Assembly (NCBI GenBank): GCA_040755755.1 | Contig: JBFLZW010000083.1 | Span: forward strand, 14,724 to 78,723 | Direction: 5' to 3' | Origin: a bacterium | Lineage (GTDB): Bacteria > SZUA-182 > DTGQ01 | DNA length: 64,000 bases | Part shown: positions 25,304-50,260 of the stretch, one piece after another | How positions within the stretch are numbered: the first letter of the stretch is position 1 | Layout of the letters: each line of letters opens with the position of its first letter | Made by a program: the position numbers and the translations under genes | Notes under the pieces: generated by a model | Seen by the model: only the letters and a program-made list of their open reading frames with translations | What the model was told of the DNA's origin: nothing | The model's database searches: none

Positions 25304-26374
25304 ATGATAATTACCAGAACCCCATTCAGGATAACCCTGGGAGGAGGAGGAACGGATTTGCCTTCGTATTATACCCGATACGGAGGGTTTGTCTTTAGTG
25401 CTGCCATCAACAAGTATATGTTTATTAATTTAAACCGGCCGGTAGTAGATGATCTGGTCAGGGTAAAGTACGCCAAATCGGAAATTGTCAAGCACAGGGA
25501 TGATCTCCAGCACGAGATTGCCAGGGCTGCCCTGAGCATGCTGGGCATTGAAAAGGCCATTGAAGTCATTTCATCAGCCGACATTCCTGATGGGACAGGG
25601 CTGGGATCATCGAGCTGTTACACCGTTGGCCTGCTGAACGCTATTCATGCATTAAAGCGTGATTATATCAGTCTTCCTGATCTGGCCGAGGAAGCCTGCT
25701 ACCTCGAGATTGAGCAGTTAAAGAAACCTATCGGAAAGCAGGATCAATATATTGCCACCTTCGGGGGATTGACTGCCTTTGAGATTGCCAGGGATGGGAG
25801 AGTTACCGTGATGCGGGTTGATGTTCCTCCCAGCGTAGTGGACGACCTCAGGCGAAATATGTTGATGTTCTACACCGGCGTATCGCGGCAGAGTATGGAT
25901 ATCCTGAGTGAGCAGAATAAAGGGGCGCAAAACAGCAAAAAGACGGTACTGGACAGTCTTCACTATATCAAAGAAAGCGGATACCAGATCAAGGAGCTGA
26001 TTGAAAAGGGGAACTTGACCGATTTTGGCCTGATGCTGGACAAGCACTGGGAACATAAGAAGAAAATGTCTTCCAAAATATCCAGCCTGGAATTTGACCG
26101 GATTTATCAGGTAGCCAAAGACTATGGGGCTCTTGGTGGAAAAATAACCGGTGCCGGAGGGGGAGGCTTTTTCCTGTTTTACATTGAGAAAGGCCATGAC
26201 CAGTTACGAACGGCGATGCATATGATGGGGCTTCGGGAAATGCGGTTTAACTTTGAGTTTGAAGGATCAAAGATTCTCGTAAACCTGGTGAACAGTGAAA
26301 ATGAATATCAGGGGCGTCACTTGTGGAGCATACCCCAGATTCAGAAGAGAATGTCGGTAATCCATGCAATTTAA
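25304..26374 (+). CDS. hddA: D-glycero-alpha-D-manno-heptose-7-phosphate kinase-like GHMP kinase
   Basis: GHMP-fold kinase that phosphorylates heptose 7-phosphate at C1 on the GDP-heptose route. The N-terminus IITRTPFRITLGGGGTDLPS and the ATP loop PDGTGLGSSSCYTVGLLNAI are diagnostic of the HddA/fucose-kinase-like group; KPIGKQDQYIATFGG and ITGAGGGGFFLFY complete the active site. Length of 356 residues is typical. AAGGAGATTGGAGAG precedes the ATG. GmhA-, GmhB- and HddC-like genes lie 4-6 kb downstream on the same strand, which supports the heptose role over L-fucose kinase. Confidence 0.87.
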   Translation: MIITRTPFRITLGGGGTDLPSYYTRYGGFVFSAAINKYMFINLNRPVVDDLVRVKYAKSEIVKHRDDLQHEIARAALSMLGIEKAIEVISSADIPDGTGLGSSSCYTVGLLNAIHALKRDYISLPDLAEEACYLEIEQLKKPIGKQDQYIATFGGLTAFEIARDGRVTVMRVDVPPSVVDDLRRNMLMFYTGVSRQSMDILSEQNKGAQNSKKTVLDSLHYIKESGYQIKELIEKGNLTDFGLMLDKHWEHKKKMSSKISSLEFDRIYQVAKDYGALGGKITGAGGGGFFLFYIEKGHDQLRTAMHMMGLREMRFNFEFEGSKILVNLVNSENEYQGRHLWSIPQIQKRMSVIHAI

Positions 26375-26388
26375 GTTAAGGTAAGGCC

Positions 26389-27216
26389 ATGAAACTCAAA
26401 GGGAAAATAGCCATTATCACTGGTGGGAGCCGCGGGATAGGAAAGGCTATCGCCAGGGCATTTCTGGCAGAGGGAGCTTTGGTAACTATTACCGGCCGGA
26501 ATCAGGATGAATTAGCCAGGGCTGGTGAAGAGCTGTCAAGGGTTGGAGCTATCCGCAGCTTCCGCGCTGACATCAGGGAGGAGCAGGAAATACGGCAACT
26601 TGTTGCCGAGGTCCTGAACACCTTCGGCACGATCGATGTGCTGGTAAACAATGCGGGCATTCAGGGCCCTATCGGGAAATTCTGGGAAGTTGATTGTGAG
26701 GATTGGGCTGATAACATCAAAGTTAACCTTCTGGGGACTGTGCGATGCACCAGGAGTGTAGTGCCAATCATGATAGCCAAAAAAGCAGGCAAGATCATCA
26801 ACCTGTCAGGTGGCGGCGCTGCTGCCTCAAGGCCCTGTTTTTCAGCCTATGGGGCAGGAAAAGCGGCTCTTGTCCGGTTCACCGAAATTCTGGCCGAGGA
26901 GGTCAGAGAGTATCACATCGACGTCAACGCTCTGGCCCCCGGGGCAGTGAATACAAGGATGCTGCACGAGATACTGGAGGCAGAAGCAAAGGCTGGTGAG
27001 AAAGAACTGAGGGACGCCAGAGAGAGGAGCGAAAAAGGGGGGACATCTCCTGAGCTGGCAGCGGCTTTGGCGGTTTTTTTAGCTTCATCTGCGTCTGATG
27101 GCCTGAGTGGACGTCTCATCAGCGCGGTTTGGGACAACTGGCAGCAGTTTAGCCCGGACCGGATTGCATCGATAATGTCGGGCAACTTATATACGCTGAG
27201 AAGGGTGAGTCAATGA
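26389..27216 (+). CDS. Short-chain dehydrogenase/reductase
   Basis: Classical SDR oxidoreductase of 275 residues. The cofactor motif is TGGSRGIGKAIA near residues 12-23, NNAGIQGP follows, and the catalytic Tyr and Lys are in SAYGAGKAA. The C-terminus ends in a substrate loop typical of carbohydrate SDRs rather than FabG. SD AAGGCC is weak; the gene starts 14 bp after the heptose kinase. It probably reduces or oxidises a keto-sugar in the heptose or amino-sugar branch. The exact substrate is not deducible. Confidence 0.82.
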   Translation: MKLKGKIAIITGGSRGIGKAIARAFLAEGALVTITGRNQDELARAGEELSRVGAIRSFRADIREEQEIRQLVAEVLNTFGTIDVLVNNAGIQGPIGKFWEVDCEDWADNIKVNLLGTVRCTRSVVPIMIAKKAGKIINLSGGGAAASRPCFSAYGAGKAALVRFTEILAEEVREYHIDVNALAPGAVNTRMLHEILEAEAKAGEKELRDARERSEKGGTSPELAAALAVFLASSASDGLSGRLISAVWDNWQQFSPDRIASIMSGNLYTLRRVSQ

Positions 27217-27259
27217 TCAATAACCACCGTGATGGAATACCGAGTCGGAGGAAATCACC

Positions 27260-28261
27260 ATGAAGGTGGCCATTATAGGAGCAGGCTTAATAGGGAATAA
27301 GAGAGCTATGGCTATCGGGAAATCACCAGGGTGCAGGCTGGCGGCTGTTTGTGATGTTAATCCTGAGCGGGCAGGGAAACTGGCGCAAATGTATGGCGCG
27401 GATACCTACCAGAACTGGGAGGAGATGGGGCAGCGGGATGATATAGAGACGGTAGTCATTGCTACTGTCAATAAGTTTCTGGCTCCCATTGCCGTATTTT
27501 TCCTGGAGAGAGGAAAGCATGTCCTGTGTGAAAAGCCCCTGGGGAGGAATGCCCGGGAAGCTGGCTTAATGGTAGAGGCTGCCAGAAAGAGCGGGGTGAA
27601 GCTGAAGACCGGCTTCAATCACCGTCATCATCCGGGAATAGCCAGGGCACGGCAGCTTGTTGACGAGGGGCGGATTGGTGAAATCAGCTTCCTGCGGTGC
27701 AGGTACGGGCACGGAGGAAGGCCGGGGTATGATCGCGAATGGCGGGCGGATAAGAATTTGTGCGGTGGCGGTGAATTGCTGGATCAGGGGGTACATGTAG
27801 TCGATCTTTTCCGGTGGTTTGCCGGGGATTTTCATGAGGTTTTTGGCTATCTTCCCACCTTGTTCTGGAACATGCAGGTTGAGGATAATGCCTTTGCCCT
27901 GTTTAAGACAAAGACCGGACAGATTGCTTCTCTCCATACCAGTTGGACTCAATGGAAAAACATTTTCTCCTTTGAGGTATTTGGCCGTGACGGCTATGTG
28001 ATTGTAGAGGGTTTGGGCGGAAGCTATGGTCCGGAAAGGCTGAAAGCAGGAAGACGAAGATCTGAGGGCGGAGCCCCGGAAGAGGAGACCATTGATTTTC
28101 CCGCCGAGGATATTTCCTGGGAAGAGGAGTGGAAGGAACTGGTACAGGCCATCAGGGAAAACCGTGAACCATTAGGGAGCGGGCAGGATGGATACGAGGC
28201 CAACCGAATGCTGGAAGCGGTGTATGATTCAGCCCGGCTTGGCAGACCGGTTGAGCTCTAG
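27260..28261 (+). CDS. Gfo/Idh/MocA oxidoreductase (second copy)
   Basis: NAD(P)-dependent sugar oxidoreductase of 333 residues. The Rossmann motif is VAIIGAGLIGNKRAMAI. The conserved CEKPLGRN loop is intact, unlike the TKP variant of the paralogue at 23722. GGGELLDQGVHVVDLFRWF is the conserved metal/substrate segment of the family. SD CGGAGGAA lies 9 bp before the ATG. Together with the adjacent SDR and epimerase it may alter the heptose or another nucleotide sugar. Confidence 0.83.
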   Translation: MKVAIIGAGLIGNKRAMAIGKSPGCRLAAVCDVNPERAGKLAQMYGADTYQNWEEMGQRDDIETVVIATVNKFLAPIAVFFLERGKHVLCEKPLGRNAREAGLMVEAARKSGVKLKTGFNHRHHPGIARARQLVDEGRIGEISFLRCRYGHGGRPGYDREWRADKNLCGGGELLDQGVHVVDLFRWFAGDFHEVFGYLPTLFWNMQVEDNAFALFKTKTGQIASLHTSWTQWKNIFSFEVFGRDGYVIVEGLGGSYGPERLKAGRRRSEGGAPEEETIDFPAEDISWEEEWKELVQAIRENREPLGSGQDGYEANRMLEAVYDSARLGRPVEL

Positions 28262-28324
28262 GCCATTGCCCCCCTATAAGATAGAGTGAAGTTATAAGAC
28301 AATCATCACAAGGAATCAAGCATC

Positions 28325-29266
28325 ATGAATAAAAAAATTGTCTTAGTTACCGGCTGTGCAGGCTTTATTGGCAGCAACCTCAGTAAATGCCTCTGTGACG
28401 AAGGGTATAAGGTAGTGGGCATTGATAATCTCTCTCACGGCACTATTGAGAATGTCGATCACCGGGTTATCTTTCATAAGAAAGATATTCGGGATCAGGA
28501 GATTTATTCATTATTTGAAGGAGTGGATACCGTATTTCACCTGGCTGCCAAAAACTGCCTGATTGACTGCCTGCGCAATCCCCTTGAGACGAGCGGAATT
28601 AATGTGTATGGAACAGTAAATGTTCTTGAAGGAGCCAGGAGAGCCAGGGTGAGAAAGTTTATCTACGCGGATACCTCGGCTGAATATGAGGGAGTACCTG
28701 ATTTCCCCTCCACGGTAGAGAGGGTATGTCCTATCGGCACTTACGCAGTGAGCAAGAGGGGAGCCGCTCTTTTTTGCGAGAGTTACCGCAACCTCCATAG
28801 AATGAATATTACTACCTTGCGATATTTTAATGTTTACGGTCCTGCGCAGGATTGGCGGCGCGTAGTGCCTCCGGTAATGAGCTCTTTCATTATTAAAATG
28901 CTCAAGGGGGAAAGGCCGGTAATTTACGGAAATGGAGAAAAAAGGAGGGATTTTATCTACGTGGACGATGTCAACCAATTTCACCTTTTAGCTATGAATG
29001 ATGAGAAATTACATGGCAAAACGTTCAATGTGGGCAGTGGCACGAACTATTCAATCAATGAAATTTTTTCTGCCATTGAAGGAATCCTGCAAACCGGTCT
29101 GACTCCAATCTATAAAGAGGATTTGCCGGGAGAGGCGCAAATCACTCTGGCGGATATCTCCCGGGAGAAGGAAATCGGCTGGGAGCCGCGAATAAGTCTG
29201 CAGGAAGGATTGAAAAGATCGATTGAGTATATCCAAAGAAGGGTACTTCAGGTGGATCTGTCATGA
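28325..29266 (+). CDS. NAD-dependent epimerase/dehydratase
   Basis: Extended SDR of 313 residues acting on a nucleotide sugar. The Rossmann motif is TGCAGFIGSNLSKCL, and the catalytic YAVSK lies near residue 141. RYFNVYGPAQDWRRVVPPVM and GEKRRDFIYVDDV resemble UDP-glucose 4-epimerases. Serine-threonine before the Tyr is DTSAEYEG rather than SSSSVYG, so the active site differs from the 2972 epimerase. It is coupled to the nucleotidyltransferase by an ATGA overlap, so the two may act on the same GDP-sugar. Confidence 0.83.
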   Translation: MNKKIVLVTGCAGFIGSNLSKCLCDEGYKVVGIDNLSHGTIENVDHRVIFHKKDIRDQEIYSLFEGVDTVFHLAAKNCLIDCLRNPLETSGINVYGTVNVLEGARRARVRKFIYADTSAEYEGVPDFPSTVERVCPIGTYAVSKRGAALFCESYRNLHRMNITTLRYFNVYGPAQDWRRVVPPVMSSFIIKMLKGERPVIYGNGEKRRDFIYVDDVNQFHLLAMNDEKLHGKTFNVGSGTNYSINEIFSAIEGILQTGLTPIYKEDLPGEAQITLADISREKEIGWEPRISLQEGLKRSIEYIQRRVLQVDLS

Positions 29267-29982
29267 AAGGAATTGTTCTTTCTGCCGGTAAAGGAACACG
29301 GCTTGGCCAGTATACGCGAAATATCCCCAAGGTGATGCTGGAAATCGGGGGAAAGCCGGTACTGGAACACGGAATCCTGCTTCTGAAAAAGCATGGGATT
29401 GAGGAAATTTTCCTTAACCTCCACTACTGCCCGCAGGTGATTCAGGACTACTTTGGAGATGGCCGAAAGTGGGGAGTACATATCCGGTATCATTTTGAAG
29501 AGGGTCTTTTGGGAACAGCCGGAGCAGTAAAGGCTTTCGAAGAGCAGATAGGGTGGGGGGAAGAAGTTCTTGTCCTCTATGGAGATAACCTGACCAATTG
29601 CAACCTGACCGCTCTGAGGCGTTTTCACCGGGAAAAAAGAGGAATGCTGACCCTGTCCTTTATCGAGAGTGAGGATGTGCACAAAAGCGGGATTATCGCA
29701 TTTAATGATAACCATCGGATAGTGAGAATGCTCGAAAAGCCAAAACCGGATGAGGTTTTCAGCCACTTCGTGAACGCGGGCGTGCTCGTGATGGAGCCTG
29801 CGGTGTTCGGCTTGATCCCGCAGGGTATATTTTATGACTTCGGCTATCATCTCCTTCCCAGGATGATTTCGGAGGGAATGGAGGTTTATGCTTACCCGAT
29901 GGATGGATTTTTAATCTCTATAGATACACCGGAATATTATCACCAGGCTCAGGAGATTTTTCGGTTGGAAGCTGAAGAATAA
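29263..29982 (+). CDS. hddC: Sugar-1-phosphate nucleotidyltransferase, HddC-like
   Basis: Makes an NDP-sugar from a sugar-1-phosphate and NTP; by context GDP-D-glycero-alpha-D-manno-heptose. The signature loop is LSAGKGTRLGQYTRNIPKVM at the N-terminus, with GTAGAVKAF and LYGDNLTNCN for metal and nucleotide binding. Length of 239 residues matches HddC and short guanylyltransferases that lack a C-terminal helix. The start overlaps the epimerase stop by 4 bp. Glucose-1-phosphate or mannose-1-phosphate specificity is the alternative. Confidence 0.82.
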   Translation: MKGIVLSAGKGTRLGQYTRNIPKVMLEIGGKPVLEHGILLLKKHGIEEIFLNLHYCPQVIQDYFGDGRKWGVHIRYHFEEGLLGTAGAVKAFEEQIGWGEEVLVLYGDNLTNCNLTALRRFHREKRGMLTLSFIESEDVHKSGIIAFNDNHRIVRMLEKPKPDEVFSHFVNAGVLVMEPAVFGLIPQGIFYDFGYHLLPRMISEGMEVYAYPMDGFLISIDTPEYYHQAQEIFRLEAEE

Positions 29983-30024
29983 GTGTTAACGTCGTCAGCA
30001 CGGGCGCAAGAGGGGAAAATTACC

Positions 30025-30789
30025 ATGAAAGGAATGAAAAGAGCAGTATTTCTCGACCGGGATGGGGTAATTAACGACATTATCTATCACCACGATATCG
30101 GGGTAATCGATAGTCCCTTTACCCCTGAACAGTTTCACCTGATCGATGGAGCGGCGCAGGCCATAAAGGAGATCAAGGGGAACGGTTTACTGGCTGTTGT
30201 AGTCAGCAATCAGCCTGGTATAGCCAAGGGGCATTTTAATGAACATGTCTTAGATCTGATTACGGAGAAAATGATAGCTGATCTGGCTCTTGAAGGGGCA
30301 AGCCTGGATGATATTTATCTGTGCCTTCATCATCCTCAGGGAAGCGGGAACGGGAGCGGAGATCGCCGGTATGTGATGGACTGCACCTGCCGAAAACCAA
30401 AACCAGGCCTACTGATCGAGGCAGCCAACAAGCACCGGATAAACCTTGAGGCCTCATATATGATTGGTGACAGCGTGACGGATATTCAGGCTGGAGCCGC
30501 TGTAGGATGCACTACTTTCTTGATTGGCCGGCCTAAATGTGATTTGTGCCGGGTTATAGAGAAAAGTGGAGTGAAACCGGACTTTATTGTGCCCAGTCTC
30601 CTGGAGGCGGTAAAGGTCATCAGGTACCGGGAAAATCTGAGAATCAGCTATCAGGAGATATCTGACGGGATATCTCTGAAGAATGAAGTATTTATCGATG
30701 AAAATCTCTATATTCACGAAGACCGATCGGACAAGAGGAGTTATGTAATCGGAGGGTTTCCCGGCAAGGAACAGGCAGGGAGAAAATAA
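30025..30789 (+). CDS. gmhB: D-glycero-D-manno-heptose 1,7-bisphosphate 7-phosphatase (HAD family)
   Basis: Removes the 7-phosphate from heptose bisphosphate. The HAD nucleophile motif is FLDRDGVIND at the N-terminus; SNQPGIAKG is motif II; CTCRKPKPGLL contains the GmhB zinc-site cysteines with CLHHPQ before it; MIGDSVTDIQAG is motif IV. Length is 254 residues, longer than E. coli GmhB (about 190) by a C-terminal tail of about 60 residues. I chose ATG 30025 with AGAGGGG upstream; a TTG/GTG-type start at 29983 would add a non-conserved leader. Confidence 0.87.
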   Translation: MKGMKRAVFLDRDGVINDIIYHHDIGVIDSPFTPEQFHLIDGAAQAIKEIKGNGLLAVVVSNQPGIAKGHFNEHVLDLITEKMIADLALEGASLDDIYLCLHHPQGSGNGSGDRRYVMDCTCRKPKPGLLIEAANKHRINLEASYMIGDSVTDIQAGAAVGCTTFLIGRPKCDLCRVIEKSGVKPDFIVPSLLEAVKVIRYRENLRISYQEISDGISLKNEVFIDENLYIHEDRSDKRSYVIGGFPGKEQAGRK

Positions 30790-30823
30790 ACGAGAAATGA
30801 AGGTAAGGAGAATGAATGGCATC

Positions 30824-31420
30824 ATGGATTATACAACTGATTATTTTTTAGAGATGCAGAAAATTATCGGGCTTTTACAAATTTCGGAAATAGAAAAAAT
30901 GATCGACCTTCTGGCTGATATGAGAGCAAAGCAGGGAAGACTTTTTTTCCTTGGTATCGGAGGAGGAGCGGGAAATGCATCCCATGCAGTGAACGACTTT
31001 CGCAAGATTGCCGGTTTTGAAGCCTACAGCCCTACGGATAATGCCTCTGAGCTGACTGCCCGCATTAATGATGATGGATGGGAGACGGTATTTGTCAGTT
31101 GGTTGAAGGGAAGCAGAATTAAGGCTGGGGACGGATTATTTATCTTTTCTGTCGGCGGTGGAAACCTGGAGAAGAAGATCAGCGCCAACCTTGTATACGC
31201 GGTCCAGTATGCTCATGAGGTTGGAGCCAAGGTTCTTGGCATAGTAGGCCGTGACGGTGGGTACACGGCACAGGCAGCGGACGCCTGTGTGGTTATTCCA
31301 ACCGTTAACCCTGAAACAGTTACTCCCCATACGGAATCATTTCAGGGGATAATCTGGCATTTAATCGTTTCCCATCCTAAAATGAAAGTCTCGGAAATGA
31401 AATGGGAATCGGTCAAATAG
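30824..31420 (+). CDS. gmhA: SIS-domain sugar isomerase, GmhA-like
   Basis: Phosphosugar isomerase fold; in this context it would convert sedoheptulose 7-phosphate to D-glycero-D-manno-heptose 7-phosphate, the first step of GDP-heptose synthesis. GIGGGAGNASHAVNDF and FSVGGGNLEKKIS are the SIS phosphate-binding loops; VNPETVTPHTESFQ is conserved in the branch. The start is uncertain: ATG 30824 gives the family-like N-terminus but lies 13 bp from AAGGAG, while in-frame ATGs at 30797 and 30812 are less well placed. The transaldolase-like gene follows 73 bp later. Confidence 0.8.
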   Translation: MDYTTDYFLEMQKIIGLLQISEIEKMIDLLADMRAKQGRLFFLGIGGGAGNASHAVNDFRKIAGFEAYSPTDNASELTARINDDGWETVFVSWLKGSRIKAGDGLFIFSVGGGNLEKKISANLVYAVQYAHEVGAKVLGIVGRDGGYTAQAADACVVIPTVNPETVTPHTESFQGIIWHLIVSHPKMKVSEMKWESVK

Positions 31421-31493: not shown

Positions 31494-32165
31494 ATGAAAA
31501 TTTTTATTGATTCAGCAAACCTGAAAGATATTGAAGAAGCACTCAGAAGAGGATTTCCCAGCGGAATCACTACCAATCCCTCGATCCTGGCGAAAGAGCA
31601 AAAATGTGATTTCAAGGTGCATATCCATAAGATTATCCAATTGGTAAAGGAGTATGGCTATCACAATATTCCTCTGAGTGTGGAGGTTTTCTCCACCGAA
31701 GCAGCCGAGATGGTCAGGCAGGCCGAGGATTTTGTGGAGGAGTTTCACTACGAGAATCTCAATATTAAGATCCCTATTGGCTGGGATGAATTATCCGTGA
31801 TCAAGCGACTGAAAGACAAAGGTATCAAGGTAAACTGCACCTGCTGCATGTCGTATAATCAGGCTGTCATGGCGGCTGATGCAGGCTCGGATTTTGTAAG
31901 CCTCTTCAGCGGCAGGATCAGGGATATCGGTCATGATTCCTCGGCGGTCATACGTGCCGTGAAGAGGACCCTCATAGAATGGGGATGTCCGTCAAAGATC
32001 ATCGTCGGCAGTATCCGTCACATTGCGGATATTAATGAAGCCATGCAGGCTGGAGCAGATATTGTTACCGTCCCGCCCAAGTTTTTCATCCAGATGTGTT
32101 CCCATCCCAAGACTACCGAAGCTGTTAACCAGTTTATGAGCGACTTCAAGGAGTGGCTGAAGTAA
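31494..32165 (+). CDS. Transaldolase/fructose-6-phosphate aldolase-like protein
   Basis: Class I aldolase of the small TalC/FSA branch, 223 residues. The Schiff-base lysine is in NLNIKIPIGWD; the N-terminus KIFIDSANLKDIEEALRRG and GITTNPSILAKE are canonical. Small transaldolases can generate or interconvert sedoheptulose 7-phosphate. It sits directly after the GmhA-like gene, which uses that compound, so it probably feeds the heptose pathway. General pentose-phosphate function is the alternative. Confidence 0.85.
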   Translation: MKIFIDSANLKDIEEALRRGFPSGITTNPSILAKEQKCDFKVHIHKIIQLVKEYGYHNIPLSVEVFSTEAAEMVRQAEDFVEEFHYENLNIKIPIGWDELSVIKRLKDKGIKVNCTCCMSYNQAVMAADAGSDFVSLFSGRIRDIGHDSSAVIRAVKRTLIEWGCPSKIIVGSIRHIADINEAMQAGADIVTVPPKFFIQMCSHPKTTEAVNQFMSDFKEWLK

Positions 32166-32179
32166 TACCTTTATCAGGT

Positions 32180-32238
32180 AGGCACAAAGGAGCAGAGGCA
32201 CAGAGAAAAATGAAAAACAACTTTGTGCCTCTGTGCCT
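32180..32238. repeat. Imperfect inverted repeat of the dispersed CTCTGTG family
   Basis: AGGCACAAAGGAGCAGAGGC at 32180-32199 and TTTGTGCCTCTGTGCCT at 32222-32238 are imperfect reverse complements around a short AT-rich loop. It lies between the transaldolase and nucleotidyltransferase genes and could terminate the glycan operon. Confidence 0.65.
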
Positions 32239-32279
32239 GCTGTATGCGGGACATACACACCAGGAAACCGCAGAGAGAA

Positions 32280-33491
32280 ATGGCTAAAGAGGAAAAATTC
32301 TTTTTAGCTTGCTTACGCTTTTTTCTTCAGAAGACAGGTTCACCAGATGAAATCCGAAGCTCCATGGGAAAAAATATGGATTGGAACCTCATCCTCTCCT
32401 GGGCACAGTCGCATGGGGTTCATCCTTTACTTTATCACGTCCTGAAAGGAGTGAACTGGACAGGAATACCGGGGCAGGTCAGGGAGAGACTGGAGAGTAA
32501 CTTTCGGGCAAACATGGCCAGAAACCTCATTCTTTCGGCAGAAACAGATAAGGTGCTGATGGCCCTGGAAAAACGGGGGATAATCAGTGTCCCCCTGAAA
32601 GGGATTTTTTTGTCAGAGGAAGTCTACCCGGATATATCATTGAGAGTGGTAACTGACATTGATCTGCTGGTTCGGGAAGAAGACCTGGCCGGGGCTGAAG
32701 AAGCACTGGTAGAGCTGGGATATTGCCACGATCATTCTATCAGGCAGGTCCTTATTCCGAACAACTGCTACACCCTGCATATGGAGAAAGGAGGGCGAAC
32801 AGGCCACAACCTCTGTGTTGAGCTGCACTGGGGGCTGGCCAACAGACGGGATTATGTCCTGCCTATGGAAAGCTGGTGGGAGACAGTCTTTCAGAATACC
32901 CGGAATAGATACTATCTGAATGGGATAAGCTGCTTCCGGATGGAACCGGAAATACTGCTGCTCTATTTGACCATTAACGCTCATATGTCTCGATATGCTT
33001 TCCTCAAACAACTTGTCGATATCGCTCAGGTTATCAGCCATTATAAGCACGACATGGATTGGGATAAAGTGATAGGCATGGCCTGTGAGCTTGGCCTTCT
33101 CGACAATCTGGTTTTTGCCCTGGGTCTGGTCTGTCGAATGTTTGACCTGCAAGTATTGCACGTGGCAGACGAATTATCCAATCGGTTGGCCTCAGGGAAG
33201 CAAAGGATATTTCAGGCGCTTTTTCGGGAGCAGAGACTTGTTCATGGCAAGATGGGTCAGGACCTTCGCCAATTCATCTTATTGTTTTTGCTCGATGAGA
33301 AGGTGGTTATCAGGTCAATTTGGAAGGTGATATTTTCCTCTCGGCAGGCTATTGCGTACCGTTATGGGTTATCTCCTCAATCTTATAGTACCTCTGTATA
33401 TCTCATTCTCAATCCCTTGCTTTCCCTGTATCGATTACTTCGAGGGTTTATTGTCGATTCCTGGGCGGGTAAGGGAATTGGAAGGAGTTAA
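32280..33491 (+). CDS. Nucleotidyltransferase family protein (PF14907-like)
   Basis: Nucleotidyltransferase-fold protein of 403 residues. The core is LKGIFLSEEVYPDISLRVV followed by TDIDLLV, with Asp126 and Asp128 as probable metal ligands, then the ELHWGLANR segment typical of PF14907 proteins. This family often sits beside PqqD-like, HprK-like and peptide-modification genes, including some lasso-peptide loci. ATG 32280 starts a conserved-looking helix; an upstream in-frame start lies within the repeat. It ends about 95 bp before the promoter of the PqqD gene. It could transfer a nucleotide or other group to a phosphorylated peptide; that is inference. Confidence 0.78.
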   Translation: MAKEEKFFLACLRFFLQKTGSPDEIRSSMGKNMDWNLILSWAQSHGVHPLLYHVLKGVNWTGIPGQVRERLESNFRANMARNLILSAETDKVLMALEKRGIISVPLKGIFLSEEVYPDISLRVVTDIDLLVREEDLAGAEEALVELGYCHDHSIRQVLIPNNCYTLHMEKGGRTGHNLCVELHWGLANRRDYVLPMESWWETVFQNTRNRYYLNGISCFRMEPEILLLYLTINAHMSRYAFLKQLVDIAQVISHYKHDMDWDKVIGMACELGLLDNLVFALGLVCRMFDLQVLHVADELSNRLASGKQRIFQALFREQRLVHGKMGQDLRQFILLFLLDEKVVIRSIWKVIFSSRQAIAYRYGLSPQSYSTSVYLILNPLLSLYRLLRGFIVDSWAGKGIGRS

Positions 33492-33586: not shown

Positions 33587-33615
33587 TTGAAATTTGATTA
33601 AATATTAACTATAAT
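33587..33615 (+). promoter_or_regulatory. Strong sigma-70 promoter of the RiPP operon
   Basis: TTGAAA at 33587-33592 and TATAAT at 33610-33615 with a 17-bp spacer, in a 157-bp AT-rich gap, 33 bp before the PqqD-like start. This is one of the best promoter matches in the window. CAGGAG precedes the ATG. Confidence 0.7.
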
Positions 33616-33648
33616 GAATATGAACAATGAATATCAGGAGATTATTTT

Positions 33649-33942
33649 ATGCTTATGAAGTATATCGCAAAGAATGAAAATACAGCTTCGCGAATAATCG
33701 ATGGGCAGGCAGTGATCATGACTCTGGGAGACAACACCTTGCATACCTTGAATGGTGTGGGATCAAGAATATGGGAGTTGTGCACCGGTCAAAAAACCAT
33801 TGGAGAAATTATCGGCGTGATCCAGTCTGAATATTCAGCCAGCCCTGAAAGTATCAGGTCGGATTGTGAGATTTTTATTCAGGAGCTTTGTACGAAAGGA
33901 ATATTGATCGTGCAGGATGAAAAAGCGTCAGAGAAGAATTAG
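33649..33942 (+). CDS. PqqD-like RiPP recognition element protein
   Basis: Small 97-residue winged-helix protein that binds the leader of a precursor peptide and delivers it to the maturase. The pattern MTLGDNTLHTLNGVGSRIWE followed by LCTGQKTIGEII is the classic PqqD signature (x-L-n-x-t-g-x-x-I-w-x-l-i-d-g). It is 12 bp before the radical-SAM maturase and about 1.1 kb before the precursor, all after one promoter. Binding of the precursor's YEQPRI motif is inferred from lasso-peptide RREs. Confidence 0.87.
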   Translation: MLMKYIAKNENTASRIIDGQAVIMTLGDNTLHTLNGVGSRIWELCTGQKTIGEIIGVIQSEYSASPESIRSDCEIFIQELCTKGILIVQDEKASEKN

Positions 33943-33954
33943 GTACCAATTATA

Positions 33955-35022
33955 ATGGACATTATATCCTATACCCTGGAGAAAAAAATTCCCATTGCTG
34001 TCCAAATGAACTTAACCAGGAAATGCAATCTCCACTGCATCCACTGCTGCGTAGGGAAGAGGAGGAAGACACACAGGGACCAAAACGACAGGGCTGGCTC
34101 GGAGTTGAGCCTGCTGCATATTCAGCGGGTTTTCAAGCAATTGGTTCAGGCCGGGTGCCTTCTTCTCACGCTGTCGGGGGGTGAGATCTTACTTCGGGAG
34201 GATCTGATTGATATTATAAGCTGTGCCCGGAGTATGGGCTTTGCGGTTAAGGTTTTTACCAATGGAACCCTGATAGGCAGGAAGAATGCCGAAGCGTTCC
34301 AGAGGATGCACCTCCAGGAAGTTCATATAAGTCTGTATGCTGCTGATGCTCATATCCATGACATGATCAGCGGTGTTTCCGGCTCCTGGACGAAAACCAT
34401 GAAAGGAATCCGTCTTCTGAGAGAAGAGGGTATATCGGTGAAGGTAAAATGTCCTATCATGAGGCAAAACCTCTCCGAATATCGGAGAGTGCATGACCTG
34501 GCAGTGAGTCTCGGAGCAGATTATGCCTTTGACCCTGTCATCACAGCCCGGGATGACGGTAACTGCGACACACTCAAGTACCGCATTGGCCAGGAGGACT
34601 TACGAAGAGTTTTGGCTGATCCGATATTTCAGGGTGAACGGAAAAAGGAGAATGGAACACGAGAGAGCTTTGCCTGTTCGGCAAGTATGATGAGTGAAGA
34701 AGTGCCCTGCAGTGCGGGGCACTATGTCTGCTTCATCTCTCCTGAAGGTGATGTTACTCCTTGTGTTCAGTTGCCCATTTTCTGCGGCAATGTGCGGGAT
34801 CATGACTTTAACTGGATATGGCATCATTCACCGCAGATGCTCAGGATACGTAAACTGCGGATGAAAGATATTCGTATCTGTAATGACTGCAGTTACCTGC
34901 CCTGGTGTGCCAGGTGTCCTGGCTTAGCCTATCTTGAGGATGGAGACCTTCTTGGGCCTTCCAGTGCCGCTTGCTGGATGGTGAAAGCGAGAGAAGAGGA
35001 GAAGCGTTGTAATCAGCTATGA
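33955..35022 (+). CDS. Radical SAM/SPASM peptide maturase
   Basis: Predicted iron-sulfur enzyme that modifies the precursor peptide encoded 75 bp downstream. The radical SAM motif is C24-x3-C28-x2-C31 (CNLHCIHC). TLSGGEILLREDL binds SAM. The C-terminal SPASM domain has CSAGHYVCFISPEGDVTPC, then CNDCSYLPWCARCPG and a last Cys in SAACWMV, enough for two auxiliary clusters. Length of 355 residues is typical. Chemistry could be thioether, cyclophane or another crosslink; the three core cysteines of the precursor make thioether formation plausible. No lasso cyclase or peptidase gene accompanies it. Confidence 0.86.
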   Translation: MDIISYTLEKKIPIAVQMNLTRKCNLHCIHCCVGKRRKTHRDQNDRAGSELSLLHIQRVFKQLVQAGCLLLTLSGGEILLREDLIDIISCARSMGFAVKVFTNGTLIGRKNAEAFQRMHLQEVHISLYAADAHIHDMISGVSGSWTKTMKGIRLLREEGISVKVKCPIMRQNLSEYRRVHDLAVSLGADYAFDPVITARDDGNCDTLKYRIGQEDLRRVLADPIFQGERKKENGTRESFACSASMMSEEVPCSAGHYVCFISPEGDVTPCVQLPIFCGNVRDHDFNWIWHHSPQMLRIRKLRMKDIRICNDCSYLPWCARCPGLAYLEDGDLLGPSSAACWMVKAREEEKRCNQL

Positions 35023-35096
35023 TTAAAATCCAGGCATTACCATATCAAGCCATCGTTGTAAGCTAGGTTATTATCAATGTATAAGGAGGTAGGATT

Positions 35097-35261
35097 ATGG
35101 AACAAAAGAAAACGCTGTCTGAAAAAACAGAAGTCAAAAAGGCTTATGAACAACCCCGGATAGTTTCCGAGGAAGTATTTGAGACCCTGGCTCTTGCCTG
35201 CTGCAAGAGCAATGCCTGTTTGCGATACGGTCTTCCCAGGGGACTGCACGGCGTAAGTTGA
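35097..35261 (+). CDS. RiPP precursor peptide, 54 residues
   Basis: Small gene between the maturase and the secreted repeat protein. ATAAGGAGGTAGGATT gives an excellent ribosome site before ATG 35097. The leader is charged and carries Y17-E-Q-P20-R-I22, the YxxPx(L/I) motif that lasso leaders use to bind PqqD-like proteins, then SEEVFETLALA. The putative core runs from about residue 34 and has Cys35, Cys36 and Cys41, ending in LRYGLPRGLHGVS. The final residue is serine. There is no similarity to pqqA. Codon use and ribosome site support translation; the leader/core boundary is inferred from the switch to cysteines. Confidence 0.82.
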   Translation: MEQKKTLSEKTEVKKAYEQPRIVSEEVFETLALACCKSNACLRYGLPRGLHGVS

Positions 35262-35377: not shown

Positions 35378-37468
35378 ATGAAATGTATGCCTTTTAAAAT
35401 CCTGACAGCAATGTTGTGTGGATTATTTTTTCGTATATGCCTGTCTGTAGGGTATATGCCCAATGCCTATGCCCAGGATATTGCAGCAGAGGGTATTGCT
35501 TCAAGTCCTCCTCAGGAGAAGACTTCTTCGGGAGTCTCGGTAATAGAAAATATCGAGTACGACCCGGTAACTCAGATCTATACTTACACCTATACATTGA
35601 GAAACCTTGGTAAAAACCTGGTCTGGTGGTGGGGGATATGGTATGAGGAAGATCCTCAGGCCATCCTTGATGACTCTCAGGCAGATGAGCAGGGCTTCAC
35701 ACCTGCTGATGTGACTGACTGCTCGCCCGGATGGAAGAACACTGCCCCTCAAAACCGTATGGGGTATTATTTATATAATGGCCCCAACGGAGAAATGGGC
35801 TTTTATTCCACCTATGCCAGCGACTTCCGGTCCGGTAACAGCCCCATTGTCCCTGCCGGGAACGATCTCCCGCTCATCGGAGGACAATGGGGATGGAATG
35901 GGCAAGGGGCTAATATTCTCACTGCCTATGGTATCCAGAAAGGACAAACAGGCTATTATGTAATTCGATCCACAAAATACTTCCTGGATAATAAAATGTT
36001 TTTCTATAATACGAAAGATTATTGGAATTCATATTACGATAGCCAAACCGGACAACTCATTATCAGAGGATTTGAATTTGTTTCTACTACTCAGCGCTCT
36101 TACAGCATATCGACATCGTCCGGAGAACCTCTGCCGGCCAGCCCAGACGATCCGGTCCTCCCTGAGATCGACGGGGGTGATGGCTGGCAGGGAGATGATT
36201 CAACCAGACAGGTAATATCCTCTCCTCCAGCAGCCGTCCTGGCCACACCTGTTCTTTCCCCCTCATCCGTCACGTTTACAGGTTCAATGTCCGTATCAAT
36301 CACCTGTGCCACGCAAGGTGCTATCATCCGCTACACTAAAGACGGCAGTGAGCCGACAGTAGATTCCCCTGCCTATACTGCTCCCCTGACACTGACAAAA
36401 ACAACTACTCTTAAGGCAAAGGCTTTCAAGAGCGGCTATACTGCAAGCGACACCGCAAGCGAAACCTACACTAAGTTGGAAAAGGCAGCTATTCCTTCCA
36501 TTTCGCCAGTATCGCGAACCTTTAGTGATTCAATTACCGTATCACTGACCTGTACGACTCAAGGGGCTGCTATCCGCTATACGATTGATGGCAGTGAACC
36601 GACTGAAACCTCTTCAGCCTATTCAACTCCCTTGATCCTGACCAGCACCACAACCATTAAAGCGAAAGCCTTCAAGAGCGGTTTCAACCCAAGTGATACC
36701 GTAAGCGGAACCTATACGAAACTCATAAAACAAGTAGCTACCCCCGGCTTCTCTCTCCCATCTGGCATCTTTCATGGTTCAGTATCTGTGTCGATCACCT
36801 GTGCTACCCAAGGGGCTATTGTCCGCTATACAACTGATGGCAGTGAGCCGATTGAGAATTCGCCAATCTATACCGCTCCTCTGACCCTGACCAGTACCAC
36901 CACTATTAAAGCTAAGGCATTCAAGGATGGTTATACTCCGAGTGCTGCCGCCAGAAGTACCTATACGGAGGAAGTTGAAACAGTGGCCAAACCTGCGTTC
37001 TCTCCCCTGCCTCGTACTTTTACCGATTCAGTAGCCGTGTCGATCACCTGCGCCACTCAAGGGGCTACTATCCGCTATACGATTGATGGCAGTGAACCGA
37101 CCGAGAATTCGCCAATTTATGCCGCTCCTCTGACTCTGACCAACACCGCCACTATCAAAGCTCAAGCTTTCAAGAGTGGCGATGTTCCGAGTGATGCCGT
37201 GAGCGGAACCTACACCAAGTTGGCAGCGCCAAAACAGCCTGCGACTAAATTTTCGGATTACTCCAGCAGTACTACTACTACTATCACCTTGTGGAACCAA
37301 CCGTGGTCATATTCATATAGCAGCATCGCTATGGACTATCAGCCCTGGTCTTCAACATCCTCAAGCTGGAGTTATCAGCCCTGGTCTTCCACTTCAAGTT
37401 GGGATTATCAATCATGGTCATTTACCACTTCAAGCTGGAATTACCAGCCATGGTCTTCTAATTTTTAA
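35378..37468 (+). CDS. Secreted protein with four chitobiase-C-terminal-like repeats and a W/Y-rich tail
   Basis: Extracellular or surface protein of 696 residues. A signal peptide ends near residue 32 (NAYA-QD). Residues about 50-265 form an unassigned domain rich in aromatic residues. Four repeats of about 83 residues begin near 287, 370, 453 and 536; each has SITCATQGAxIRYTxDGSEP and ends KAFKSG..PSDTVSGTYTK, the CHB_HEX_C_1 (PF13290) pattern. The last ~75 residues contain five QPWS or QSWS units within SSW-Y stretches, ending in SNF. The C-terminus has no LPXTG or PEP-CTERM signal. Function is unknown; it may bind glycan or display the peptide product. Confidence 0.82.
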   Translation: MKCMPFKILTAMLCGLFFRICLSVGYMPNAYAQDIAAEGIASSPPQEKTSSGVSVIENIEYDPVTQIYTYTYTLRNLGKNLVWWWGIWYEEDPQAILDDSQADEQGFTPADVTDCSPGWKNTAPQNRMGYYLYNGPNGEMGFYSTYASDFRSGNSPIVPAGNDLPLIGGQWGWNGQGANILTAYGIQKGQTGYYVIRSTKYFLDNKMFFYNTKDYWNSYYDSQTGQLIIRGFEFVSTTQRSYSISTSSGEPLPASPDDPVLPEIDGGDGWQGDDSTRQVISSPPAAVLATPVLSPSSVTFTGSMSVSITCATQGAIIRYTKDGSEPTVDSPAYTAPLTLTKTTTLKAKAFKSGYTASDTASETYTKLEKAAIPSISPVSRTFSDSITVSLTCTTQGAAIRYTIDGSEPTETSSAYSTPLILTSTTTIKAKAFKSGFNPSDTVSGTYTKLIKQVATPGFSLPSGIFHGSVSVSITCATQGAIVRYTTDGSEPIENSPIYTAPLTLTSTTTIKAKAFKDGYTPSAAARSTYTEEVETVAKPAFSPLPRTFTDSVAVSITCATQGATIRYTIDGSEPTENSPIYAAPLTLTNTATIKAQAFKSGDVPSDAVSGTYTKLAAPKQPATKFSDYSSSTTTTITLWNQPWSYSYSSIAMDYQPWSSTSSSWSYQPWSSTSSWDYQSWSFTTSSWNYQPWSSNF

Positions 37469-37608: not shown

Positions 37609-38454
37609 ATGCGTAACTTCAAATTGGAAATCGGGGGTATACCACTAATAATTAAGTCCTGTGAACCGTGGTTTATTCAGATGATAGCTGAAAAATATCG
37701 AGACTTTGCTTTATTGTGCGGTTTGAAAGAAGAAGGTATTTTTCAAACATCCCGTTCAAGTTCTCATCCTCCCGTTCATCTGCAGATTGACATTCGGCAG
37801 AAAGAATCGGAGAAATGGAATGATATGCTCGACGAAACACTTTGGGTGGATGTTTCATATCATAATAAGAAGTTTATCATTCGGAGACCTGATCTTGAGG
37901 GGGACATCGATTTTGATAACCGGATTGCCCGCGTTACCAACAGGGCAGCGGTTTACAGTTTTGATTCCTTTTTGCGAATTCTCTATTCCCTGTTCCTTGT
38001 TCAAGAGGGAGGGTTCCTCCTTCATGCTGCCTCAGTTGTAAGAGATGGTCAGGGGTATCTGTTCATGGGAAAATCCGGAGCAGGAAAGTCCACTATTGCC
38101 ATCCATTCTTCTAAATACACAGTCTTAAGTGACGAGATTTCCCTGGTTAAAAAGGCAGGTGCCGATTATCTGGTCTACAGCACTCCTTTTTGGGGGGAGC
38201 AGGAAATTAAGGGCAGGAATTATTTCTCTCCTCTTGCTGGGATTTATCGATTAAAGCAGAGCTCTCAGTTGCTGACGAGAAAATTGTCCGAAAGGGAGGC
38301 ATTGTGCAGATTGATGGAAAATATCTTATATTTTAGCCGGGAACCTTTTCTGACCAGACAATTATTTCAAAACTGTACTGATCTAATCCAGCAAGTAGCA
38401 ATTTATGAATTGGAATTCCAAAAGGATAGTTCATTTTGGAATATGATCGGTTAG
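37609..38454 (+). CDS. HPr-kinase-like (HprK-type) P-loop protein
   Basis: P-loop kinase of 281 residues. The Walker A motif is GKSGAGKST at about 154-162, preceded by FLLHAASVVRDGQGYLF as in HprK relatives; LSDEISLV at about 173-180 supplies the second acidic motif. It lacks the N-terminal domain of true HPr kinase. In lasso-peptide clusters such as paeninodin, proteins of this family phosphorylate a C-terminal serine of the precursor. The precursor at 35097 ends in serine, so the same role is inferred here. ATG 37609 was chosen over a TTG at 37546 inside the terminator hairpin. Confidence 0.83.
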   Translation: MRNFKLEIGGIPLIIKSCEPWFIQMIAEKYRDFALLCGLKEEGIFQTSRSSSHPPVHLQIDIRQKESEKWNDMLDETLWVDVSYHNKKFIIRRPDLEGDIDFDNRIARVTNRAAVYSFDSFLRILYSLFLVQEGGFLLHAASVVRDGQGYLFMGKSGAGKSTIAIHSSKYTVLSDEISLVKKAGADYLVYSTPFWGEQEIKGRNYFSPLAGIYRLKQSSQLLTRKLSEREALCRLMENILYFSREPFLTRQLFQNCTDLIQQVAIYELEFQKDSSFWNMIG

Positions 38455-38500: not shown

Positions 38501-39106
38501 TCAGTTTCCTTTGAGGTTAAAAAAGGAGCACAGAAAATGAAAAGCATACCAAAATCCTTTCCGGAATGCTCTATAAGAAAAATCCTGCCATTGACTTTTC
38601 CCGCCTTTTTGATTTTCTCTGCCCTTTTCTAATAAGGCATAAATCCTTCCAGCCATTTTATAAAATTTCAACAGCTTCTGATTTCGCTTCTGCCATAGGA
38701 CAGGTTGTAATCTGGGGGAAAGCTCCGAATGACCTTCAATATTCATCACAATGGCCGCGATCTCATCAGGATAGCATACTTTTGGAAAATAATCATTATC
38801 TCCCTTTTCCCAGAATAAAAGCCGGTTTTTAAGGCAAAATCTGCCTACAATTCTGTGGATTATTAAGGTGCCCGCTGCTGTGGAACTACTTCCTACGTCA
38901 TTTTCCTGCTGAAATGTCAGGCCATTTTGGCAAAAATGGTGAGTGCTTGGGGGCTTTCTTTTTCTTAAAATAACTATCCTGCCTACCTGGAGATCAGATT
39001 CAGGGCTAAAATCTGTCCAGACTTTAGCCGATAGGGTTTTGCCATCAGGAAATAGCCCTTTCATGCTATCTCCTTTGATCTTAACTTGCCAGATATCAGT
39101 TGTCAT
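38501..39106 (-). CDS. S24/S26-family signal-peptidase-like protein with a Ser/His active site
   Basis: Small serine peptidase-like protein of 201 residues on the opposite strand, converging on the kinase gene. Ser14 lies in GDSMKGLFPDG; His84 in LIIHRIVGR is at the position of the general base (lysine in eubacterial type I enzymes, histidine in SipW/Sec11 types); Asp103 lies in KGDND. Residues about 51-78 form an extra loop. The C-terminal 60 residues are basic and aromatic. It may cleave the precursor leader or the secreted protein; neither is shown. The ribosome site is weak. Confidence 0.72.
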   Translation of the reverse strand: MTTDIWQVKIKGDSMKGLFPDGKTLSAKVWTDFSPESDLQVGRIVILRKRKPPSTHHFCQNGLTFQQENDVGSSSTAAGTLIIHRIVGRFCLKNRLLFWEKGDNDYFPKVCYPDEIAAIVMNIEGHSELSPRLQPVLWQKRNQKLLKFYKMAGRIYALLEKGRENQKGGKSQWQDFSYRAFRKGFWYAFHFLCSFFNLKGN

Positions 39107-39195: not shown

Positions 39196-39205
39196 TCAGA
39201 TATTA

Positions 39206-39322
<117 letters not shown>

Positions 39323-39421
39323 AAAATGTAAGTCAAGTTTTTGATCTTTGCTTTTGGGGTAAATGGAGATTGAAGGAGGGCATCTTGCGCATTTACAAAG
39401 AATGCAGGGAAAGAAAAGAGT

Positions 39422-42431
<3,010 letters not shown>

Positions 42432-42489
42432 ATACATTTTCCCTTGTATGTCAAAGAATCCTTCGTCTAATTTACCCTAGCAAAGATTC

Positions 42490-42505
42490 AATTTTCAAAG
42501 ATCTA
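42490..42505 (-). promoter_or_regulatory. boxA-like element in the 23S leader (operon 1)
   Basis: Minus-strand AGATCTTTGAAAATTG lies about 60 bp before 23S and resembles an antitermination boxA. The copy in operon 2 is at 48085-48100. Confidence 0.45.
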
Positions 42506-42559
42506 AAAAGAAACCACACAGACCCAAACTCACCAAAGATATTCTCTCTCTCTCTTCTT

Positions 42560-42588
42560 TTCTCTGTGTCTCTGTGCCTCTGTGGTTG
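42560..42588. repeat. Dispersed CTCTGTG-type repeat in the tRNA-23S spacer (operon 1)
   Basis: TTCTCTGTGTCTCTGTGCCT followed by CTGTGGTT lies inside the transcribed spacer between tRNA-Ala and 23S. It matches the intergenic repeat at 57803. The operon 2 copy is at 48155-48183. Confidence 0.7.
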
Positions 42589-42670
42589 CCTTTCTTTTTT
42601 TCACATATTACCCCTTCATGGGTATCTTTCAAAAACCTTTTTTCTTTTCTCTTTCCTGCTTTCTCTTCTA

Positions 42671-42746
42671 TGGTGGAGATGAGCGGGTTCGAACCGCTGA
42701 CCTCCTGCTTGCAAGGCAGGCGCTCTCCCAACTGAGCTACACCCCC
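42671..42746 (-). tRNA. tRNA-Ala (TGC), operon 1
   Basis: 76 nt on the minus strand beginning GGGGGTGTAGCTCAG. The anticodon loop reads CTTGCAA, giving TGC. The 3' CCA is encoded. It sits between tRNA-Ile and 23S as in many rRNA spacers. Confidence 0.95.
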
Positions 42747-42759
42747 TTTTTCTCTGTTA

Positions 42760-42833
<74 letters not shown>

Positions 42834-42890
42834 AACAAAAAGGGAGGGTATCGCTATTTCGCTTATCGTCAATCTCAATGGATTCTTTCA

Positions 42891-44460
<1,570 letters not shown>

Positions 44461-44510
44461 AGTTTTATCCCTATCCTAAATTCCTGTCCGCAAAATAGCG
44501 ATACCCATCT

Positions 44511-44522
44511 TTTCAAAGAACT
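44511..44522 (-). promoter_or_regulatory. boxA-like element in the rRNA leader (operon 1)
   Basis: Minus-strand AGTTCTTTGAAA, about 50 bp upstream of 16S, matches the rRNA antitermination boxA pattern. Operon 2 has the identical site at 50106-50117. Confidence 0.6.
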
Positions 44523-44576
44523 ATATACTGCCTTCTTTCTCTTTCTTCCCGTGGATCTTTCTCAACCGCGTTTTTT

Positions 44577-44605
44577 ATTCTATCAACCTTTCCTCCCCCT
44601 GTCAA
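44577..44605 (-). promoter_or_regulatory. rRNA promoter P2 (operon 1)
   Basis: Minus-strand TTGACA (44600-44605), 17-bp spacer, TAGAAT (44577-44582). It lies inside the duplicated segment and is identical in operon 2. Confidence 0.8.
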
Positions 44606-44657
44606 GCTCTTTGTTCGCTTTTTTCTCAACCCAGCATCCTGCTCAACAGGAAATCCC

Positions 44658-44686
44658 ATACTATCATCACCTCTCACCCTTGTCAA
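44658..44686 (-). promoter_or_regulatory. rRNA promoter P1 (operon 1)
   Basis: Minus-strand TTGACA (44681-44686), 17-bp spacer, TAGTAT (44658-44663). It lies outside the identical repeat; spacer sequence differs from operon 2 P1 although both boxes are the same. Confidence 0.8.
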
Positions 44687-44751
44687 TATTTTTGTTTATT
44701 TTTTTATGATGAACATCCGGTAGAGGAGGGGAGAAGAACCGAGCTGAGAAA

Positions 44752-44784
44752 GCAAAGCCCGCAACACTGAGTTACGGGCTTTGC
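44752..44784 (-). terminator. Terminator of rRNA operon 2
   Basis: The 10-bp arms GCAAAGCCCG (44752-44761) and its complement (44775-44784) lie 16 bp beyond the operon 2 5S gene. The T-tract on the minus strand is short. Its sequence is unrelated to the operon 1 terminator. Confidence 0.65.
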
Positions 44785-44800
44785 AGAGAAAATTAAATTA

Positions 44801-44917
<117 letters not shown>

Positions 44918-45016
44918 AAAATGTAAGTCAAGTTTTTGATCTTTGCTTTTGGGGTAAATGGAGATTGAAGGAGGGCATCTTGCGCATTTACAAAGAATGC
45001 AGGGAAAGAAAAGAGT

Positions 45017-48026
<3,010 letters not shown>

Positions 48027-48154
48027 ATACATTTTCCCTTGTATGTCAAAGAATCCTTCGTCTAATTTACCCTAGCAAAGATTCAATTTTCAAAGATCTA
48101 AAAAGAAACCACACAGACCCAAACTCACCAAAGATATTCTCTCTCTCTCTTCTT

Positions 48155-48183
48155 TTCTCTGTGTCTCTGTGCCTCTGTGGTTG
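48155..48183. repeat. Dispersed CTCTGTG-type repeat in the tRNA-23S spacer (operon 2)
   Basis: Identical to the copy at 42560-42588, carried along with the operon duplication. Confidence 0.7.
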
Positions 48184-48265
48184 CCTTTCTTTTTTTCACA
48201 TATTACCCCTTCATGGGTATCTTTCAAAAACCTTTTTTCTTTTCTCTTTCCTGCTTTCTCTTCTA

Positions 48266-48341
48266 TGGTGGAGATGAGCGGGTTCGAACCGCTGACCTCC
48301 TGCTTGCAAGGCAGGCGCTCTCCCAACTGAGCTACACCCCC
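48266..48341 (-). tRNA. tRNA-Ala (TGC), operon 2
   Basis: Identical to the operon 1 copy, 76 nt with CCA encoded. Confidence 0.95.
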
Positions 48342-48354
48342 TTTTTCTCTGTTA

Positions 48355-48428
<74 letters not shown>

Positions 48429-48485
48429 AACAAAAAGGGAGGGTATCGCTATTTCGCTTATCGTCAATCTCAATGGATTCTTTCA

Positions 48486-50055
<1,570 letters not shown>

Positions 50056-50171
50056 AGTTTTATCCCTATCCTAAATTCCTGTCCGCAAAATAGCGATACC
50101 CATCTTTTCAAAGAACTATATACTGCCTTCTTTCTCTTTCTTCCCGTGGATCTTTCTCAACCGCGTTTTTT

Positions 50172-50200
50172 ATTCTATCAACCTTTCCTCCCCCTGTCAA
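50172..50200 (-). promoter_or_regulatory. rRNA promoter P2 (operon 2)
   Basis: Minus-strand TTGACA (50195-50200), 17-bp spacer, TAGAAT (50172-50177), identical to operon 1 P2. Confidence 0.8.
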
Positions 50201-50260
50201 GCTCTTTGTTCGCTCTCCCTTTATCCTTTATCCGCCATCATTTTCTCACCGGGGACTACT

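What the first reader, a model, noticed from the sequence alone, without database searches (positions are those of the whole stretch)
33587..35261. Unannotated RiPP operon: PqqD-like RRE, radical-SAM/SPASM maturase and a 54-residue precursor
Seen: a consensus promoter (33587-33615), a PqqD-like gene, a radical-SAM/SPASM gene with full cluster cysteines, then a small gene at 35097-35261 with an ideal ribosome site. Its leader has Y17xxP20xI22, the motif that RRE proteins bind in lasso leaders, and its core holds Cys35, Cys36 and Cys41. Known: RRE plus radical-SAM/SPASM plus short Cys-containing peptide is the layout of sactipeptide/ranthipeptide-type systems. Inferred: a new thioether or other crosslinked peptide. 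No lasso cyclase is present.
Basis: partly seen in the sequence, partly recalled or inferred. Interest (0 to 1): 0.85.

Follow-up and report, generated by a model that had tools for sequence, protein, structure and literature searches.

The report
Radical-SAM phosphopeptide (LPP-like RiPP) cassette
The small gene is a real peptide precursor served by a larger machine that combines a radical enzyme, probably crosslinking the peptide's cysteines, with the kinase, nucleotidyltransferase and leader peptidase of recently described phosphorylated peptides, so it points to a widespread and apparently undescribed branch of ribosomal natural products.

Summary
The ORF is conserved in all three family relatives and evolves as a protein. 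The reading is incomplete. [quoted passage not shown] Those three plus the RRE are the core of the Bacillota linear polyphosphorylated peptides (LPPs; PMC13381572). The closest solved structure to the window's RRE is LppB with its leader, and the precursor keeps the YxxP and FET elements used by LppB and LppS. The kinase-plus-radical-SAM cassette occurs in 47 loci, in at least 13 named phyla. Precursor cores are hypervariable, yet 43 of 50 end in Ser (expected about 7%) and nearly all carry at least two Cys. Best explanation: the RRE delivers the leader; the radical-SAM enzyme modifies the Cys-rich core (thioether likely, unproven); the kinase phosphorylates the C-terminal Ser, as in paeninodin; the nucleotidyltransferase may decorate that phosphate; the peptidase cuts after FET. 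I found no prior description of this combination. New variant of a known kind.

The parts
32280..33491 (+). NTP_transf_5 nucleotidyltransferase (likely start 32280; ORF opens at 32223)
   Evidence: PF14907 E 4e-51; fused to the peptidase in L038, L061, L085
33587..33615 (+). sigma-70-like promoter, TTGAAA-17-TATAAT
   Evidence: 11 of 12 matches
33649..33942 (+). PqqD-type discrete RRE
   Evidence: PF05402 E 1.9e-16; best PDB match LppB-leader complex 9x8z, E 8.9e-9
33955..35022 (+). radical-SAM/SPASM maturase
   Evidence: PF04055, PF13186; cluster cysteines present
35097..35261 (+). precursor peptide, 54 aa: predicted leader 1-30 (YxxPxI at 17-22, FET at 28-30), core 31-54 with Cys35, Cys36, Cys41 and C-terminal Ser54
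   Evidence: conserved in relatives; coding-type substitutions; leader comparison with LppA
35378..37468 (+). exported-looking protein with four chitobiase/beta-hexosaminidase C-terminal domains; role in the cassette unknown
   Evidence: PF13290; same position in the same-genus genome but not between precursor and kinase in L021 or L023
37505..37546 (+). strong terminator-like hairpin
   Evidence: 19 pairs
37609..38454 (+). HprK-like kinase (likely start 37609; ORF opens at 37546)
   Evidence: TIGR04249 3.5e-12, below cut-off; PEPCK/HprK fold; His139, Lys160, Asp175, Glu176
38501..39106 (-). archaeal-type signal-peptidase-like protein, predicted leader peptidase
   Evidence: profile matches SEC11A E 1.9e-11; Ser14, His84, Asp103

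Best explanation
A radical-SAM branch of the LPP/paeninodin-type phosphorylated RiPPs. The RRE (33649-33942) binds the YxxPxI leader motif and presents the precursor. The radical-SAM/SPASM enzyme modifies the Cys-rich core; a thioether or other Cys-involving crosslink is the most likely chemistry (inferred). The HprK-like kinase phosphorylates the C-terminal Ser54, as PadeK does (inferred from C-terminal Ser conservation). The NTP_transf_5 protein then adds a group to the phosphate, as proposed for PsmN (inferred). The signal-peptidase-like protein, aided by the RRE, cuts after F28-E29-T30 and frees a 24-residue core (inferred from LppS). Shown here: gene identity, conservation, co-occurrence, catalytic residues and the C-terminal Ser and Cys statistics. 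No chemistry has been shown.
For: Precursor conserved with the maturase in relatives. 47 loci hold radical SAM plus kinase, 46 of them PqqD, 32 the peptidase, 20 the nucleotidyltransferase, in at least 13 named phyla. Peptidase and nucleotidyltransferase are one protein in three loci. 43 of 50 precursors end in Ser against 6.9% Ser inside the cores; all 45 non-redundant ones have at least two Cys after the motif; in a later leader-only search 11 of 12 end in Ser and one in Thr. RRE closest to LppB (9x8z), with N35, V37, D72 and F76 matching the leader-binding N33, V35, D70 and F74 of LppB. FET is the LppS cleavage determinant and is present. Kinase and peptidase catalytic residues intact. C-terminal Ser is the known acceptor of paeninodin kinases.
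Against: No chemistry tested. The kinase scores below every curated cut-off and its fold search ranks PEPCK above HprK; its second acidic residue is Glu, not Asp. LPP and Bsf kinases use Ser3 of the core, not the last residue. Five cassette precursors end in Gly, Pro, Arg, Cys or Asp, and one (L035) reads through a probable frameshift. The peptidase fold match is weak. No exporter next to the window cassette.
Confidence: 0.7

Rival explanations
1. Plain sactipeptide/ranthipeptide system: RRE plus radical SAM make thioethers; kinase, nucleotidyltransferase and peptidase are unrelated neighbours.
For: SPASM maturase and Cys-bearing cores in all non-redundant precursors; distant hits to sactipeptide maturases.
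Against: Kinase and PqqD accompany the maturase in dozens of loci across phyla; C-terminal Ser is conserved, which thioether chemistry does not need.
Confidence: 0.13
2. An LPP-type phosphopeptide in which the radical-SAM enzyme makes a different change (for example a carbon-carbon or Cys-Lys linkage, epimerisation) and the Cys form disulfides.
For: A Lys follows the first core Cys by one or two residues in most precursors; SPASM enzymes are chemically diverse.
Against: Two or more Cys in every non-redundant precursor points to Cys chemistry.
Confidence: 0.12
3. A divergent SynChlorMet (Scm) cassette.
For: The kinase's best NCBIfam hit is ScmC (3.5e-12); PqqD and radical SAM also hit ScmD and ScmE/ScmF.
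Against: All hits are far below the curated cut-offs (46 vs 125, 29 vs 100, 108 vs 400 bits); only one cassette radical-SAM gene, where Scm has two named ones.
Confidence: 0.05

Closest known systems
Linear polyphosphorylated peptides, LPP (Popov et al. 2026, PMC13381572)
   Same: discrete RRE, YxxP leader with FET, HprK-like kinase, NTP transferase, archaeal-type signal-peptidase leader peptidase, polysaccharide locus, no lasso cyclase
   Different: radical-SAM/SPASM enzyme and Cys-rich core added; conserved Ser is C-terminal rather than core Ser3; no MsbA-like exporter in the cassette; outside Bacillota; FET two residues nearer to the Tyr
Paeninodin and pseudomycoidin lasso peptides (PMC8498205, PMC9266682)
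   Same: HprK kinase with a C-terminal Ser acceptor, nucleotidyltransferase, RRE
   Different: no lasso B2 peptidase family in the four family genomes, no cyclase seen in the cassette; radical SAM instead
Sactipeptides and ranthipeptides
   Same: SPASM radical-SAM maturase, Cys in the core
   Different: RRE is a separate protein; kinase, nucleotidyltransferase and peptidase of the phosphopeptide type; crosslink not shown
SynChlorMet cassette (TIGR04248-TIGR04251)
   Same: PqqD, HprK-like protein, radical SAM/SPASM
   Different: scores far below cut-offs; single maturase

Membership tests
LPP | discrete RRE with YxxP-binding residues and YxxP leader | tested here: met
   PF05402; best PDB match LppB; N35, V37, D72, F76 conserved
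LPP | archaeal-type signal-peptidase-like leader peptidase with Ser/His/Asp, FET cleavage element in the leader | tested here: met
   F28-E29-T30; cleavage itself not tested
LPP | HprK-like kinase and NTP transferase in the cluster | tested here: met
LPP | acceptor Ser at core position 3 (FETxxS) | tested here: not met
   window reads FET-LAL; the conserved Ser is the last residue
LPP | MsbA-like ABC exporter | tested here: inconclusive
   none among the window genes examined; ABC ATPase and permease genes near 9 of the cassette loci, not shown to be MsbA-like
LPP | phosphate is the primary modification, peptide otherwise linear | not testable with these tools
   a radical-SAM enzyme is present, so probably not linear-only
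lasso peptide | B2 leader peptidase (PF13471) and macrolactam cyclase | tested here: not met
   no PF13471 in G000-G003; no cyclase among the cassette genes scanned
sactipeptide/ranthipeptide | radical-SAM/SPASM maturase and Cys-bearing precursor | tested here: met
sactipeptide/ranthipeptide | Cys thioether to an alpha or other carbon | not testable with these tools
   needs mass spectrometry
SynChlorMet cassette | components reach TIGR04248-TIGR04251 cut-offs | tested here: not met
   window; L032, L059, L060

The most novel reading that the evidence does not exclude
The mature product is a radical-crosslinked peptide whose C-terminal phosphoserine carries a phosphosugar linkage: kinase and nucleotidyltransferase make a peptide glycosylated through phosphate, or joined to the exopolysaccharide made next door. 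That would be a ribosomal peptide-polysaccharide conjugate.
Probability: 0.12. Interest if true: 0.85.

Novelty: new variant of a known kind. Interest (0 to 1): 0.62.

Why it matters
It merges two RiPP chemistries that the papers found here treat apart: radical-SAM core modification and HprK-type Ser phosphorylation. It extends LPP-like machinery, which its authors describe as restricted to Bacillota, to at least 13 other phyla. The terminal Ser, the Cys set and the FET site give sharp, cheap tests, and the pairing with polysaccharide loci bears on the open question of what these phosphopeptides do.

Tried and rejected
Naming the organism: not possible; it lies in a small phylum with about nine genomes held, and records near it may be left out of the named scan. 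Family searches with ten precursors: no Pfam or NCBIfam match apart from one chance Arg_repressor hit. AxA-type cleavage before Cys35 (A32-L33-A34) was considered and set below FET, because LppS data map the cut to FET. The 2011 Haft and Basu paper on such radical-SAM systems is not held. The maturase tree is a quick one; the careful search did not finish. Thirteen cassette loci gave no precursor with the leader-only profiles; three of these (L046, L049, L057) have one by motif. No set of radical-SAM RiPP precursors without a kinase was large enough to serve as a control for the C-terminal Ser.

Full report
Observation. The promoter 33587-33615 matches 11 of 12 consensus bases. The PqqD gene is 33649-33942 (PF05402, 1.9e-16) and the radical SAM/SPASM gene 33955-35022 (PF04055 3.5e-21, PF13186 8.8e-10), with the CxxxCxxC motif and the SPASM cysteines in place. 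The 54-residue ORF 35097-35261 has an AAGGAGG ribosome site. It is conserved in the same-genus genome and in both same-family genomes at 63-76% identity, with dN 0.18 against dS 0.49 to the nearest copy and, in the others, differences concentrated in third codon positions. G003 has three precursor copies but one matching maturase. Two copies stand away from it, one behind a nucleotidyltransferase gene and one behind a shortened one, which suggests maturation in trans.

Surroundings. The operon belongs to a larger cassette. Upstream is an NTP_transf_5 nucleotidyltransferase (PF14907, 4e-51). Downstream, after an exported-looking protein with chitobiase-C-like domains, lies an HprK-like kinase and, convergent with it, a signal-peptidase-like protein. 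The kinase scores below the curated cut-offs (ScmC 3.5e-12, HprK-related 9.5e-9), but its model (pLDDT 90.6) has the PEPCK/HprK fold, and His139, Lys160, Asp175 and Glu176 plausibly correspond to the His-Lys-Asp-Asp motif reported for lasso kinases, the last one as Glu. The peptidase profile matches SEC11, the archaeal/ER type (1.9e-11), and keeps Ser14, His84 and Asp103; its structural match is weak. The cassette sits at the end of a polysaccharide locus with sugar transferase, glycosyltransferase, aminotransferase, epimerase and sugar-nucleotide genes.

Recurrence. Starting from the maturase, a scan of named genomes and of relatives gave 47 loci, the window included, that hold both the radical SAM and the kinase. 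A PqqD is found in 46 (the exception is a short contig), the peptidase in 32 and the nucleotidyltransferase in 20 within the stretch held. They come from at least 13 named phyla, among them Acidobacteriota, Omnitrophota, Elusimicrobiota, Verrucomicrobiota, Myxococcota and Planctomycetota. In three loci the peptidase and the nucleotidyltransferase are one protein. In a quick tree the cassette label is strongly clustered, 6 changes against a mean of 30 for shuffles, and the window lies in a supported group of 16 cassette maturases (97% SH-aLRT).

Precursors. They were found by leader motif or by profiles built mainly on the leader, so the C terminus was not selected for. The cores cannot be aligned over their length, yet 43 of 50 end in Ser and one more in Thr; without the close copies it is 38 of 45, against a Ser frequency of 6.9% inside the cores. 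Relatedness makes the nominal probability (1.8e-37) too small, but the pattern spans the phyla. In a leader-only search of the phylum of G093, made after the pattern had been noticed, 11 of 12 further precursors ended in Ser and the other in Thr (one of them has the same peptide as L044). All 45 have two or more Cys after the motif, and in most a Lys follows the first core Cys by one or two residues.

Mechanism. The literature supplies the parts. In the LPP family (PMC13381572; [quoted passage not shown] No radical SAM enzyme is mentioned in its main text. The best PDB match of the window's RRE is LppB with its leader (9x8z, 8.9e-9), and the residues that hold the leader Tyr and Pro are kept. 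The window precursor has Y17, P20, I22 and F28-E29-T30. In paeninodin the kinase uses the C-terminal Ser; in pseudomycoidin the nucleotidyltransferase is tied to hexoses on that phosphate (PMC8498205, PMC9266682). The most likely path is therefore RRE binding, radical-SAM modification of the Cys-rich core, phosphorylation of Ser54, decoration of the phosphate, and cleavage after residue 30. The order of steps, the crosslink and the decoration are inferred.

Membership. It works like an LPP, but the defining acceptor Ser at core position 3 is missing and there is an added modification enzyme, so I do not file it as an LPP member. It is not a lasso system: no PF13471 in the four family genomes. 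It is not a SynChlorMet member by curated cut-offs. Whether it is a sactipeptide or ranthipeptide depends on an untested bond. I call it a new variant of a known kind. Paper searches found no description of the combination, but only open-licence papers could be searched.

Noticed in passing
39202-50214: Two rRNA operons (16S, two tRNAs, 23S, 5S, minus strand) stand in direct tandem, period 5595 bases, identical over 5418 bases. A real duplication or an assembly effect.
   Followed up: partly
37250-37468: The C terminus of the 696-aa protein has Ser/Thr-rich repeats with Tyr-Gln-Pro-Trp-like units; the same-genus relative (L019) has a diverged version.
   Followed up: partly
25304-31420: GHMP kinase, epimerase, nucleotidyltransferase, HAD phosphatase and SIS isomerase look like a sugar-nucleotide (heptose-type) pathway beside a transaldolase-like gene.
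   Followed up: partly
17934-18929: A second radical-SAM/SPASM gene lies in the polysaccharide locus directly before a glycosyltransferase gene.
   Followed up: no
L059:2157-3777: In a WOR-3 contig the cassette carries a second radical-SAM gene related to geopeptide and Cys-rich-peptide maturases (TIGR04280 1.4e-70, below cut-off) next to a precursor that ends in Pro.
   Followed up: no
32153-32287 and 42495-42731: Stretches that read RHKGAEAQRK or HRGTETQRKEER in one frame look like a dispersed repeat; a similar piece (ENTEAQRHKG) extends the kinase N terminus in L021.
   Followed up: no
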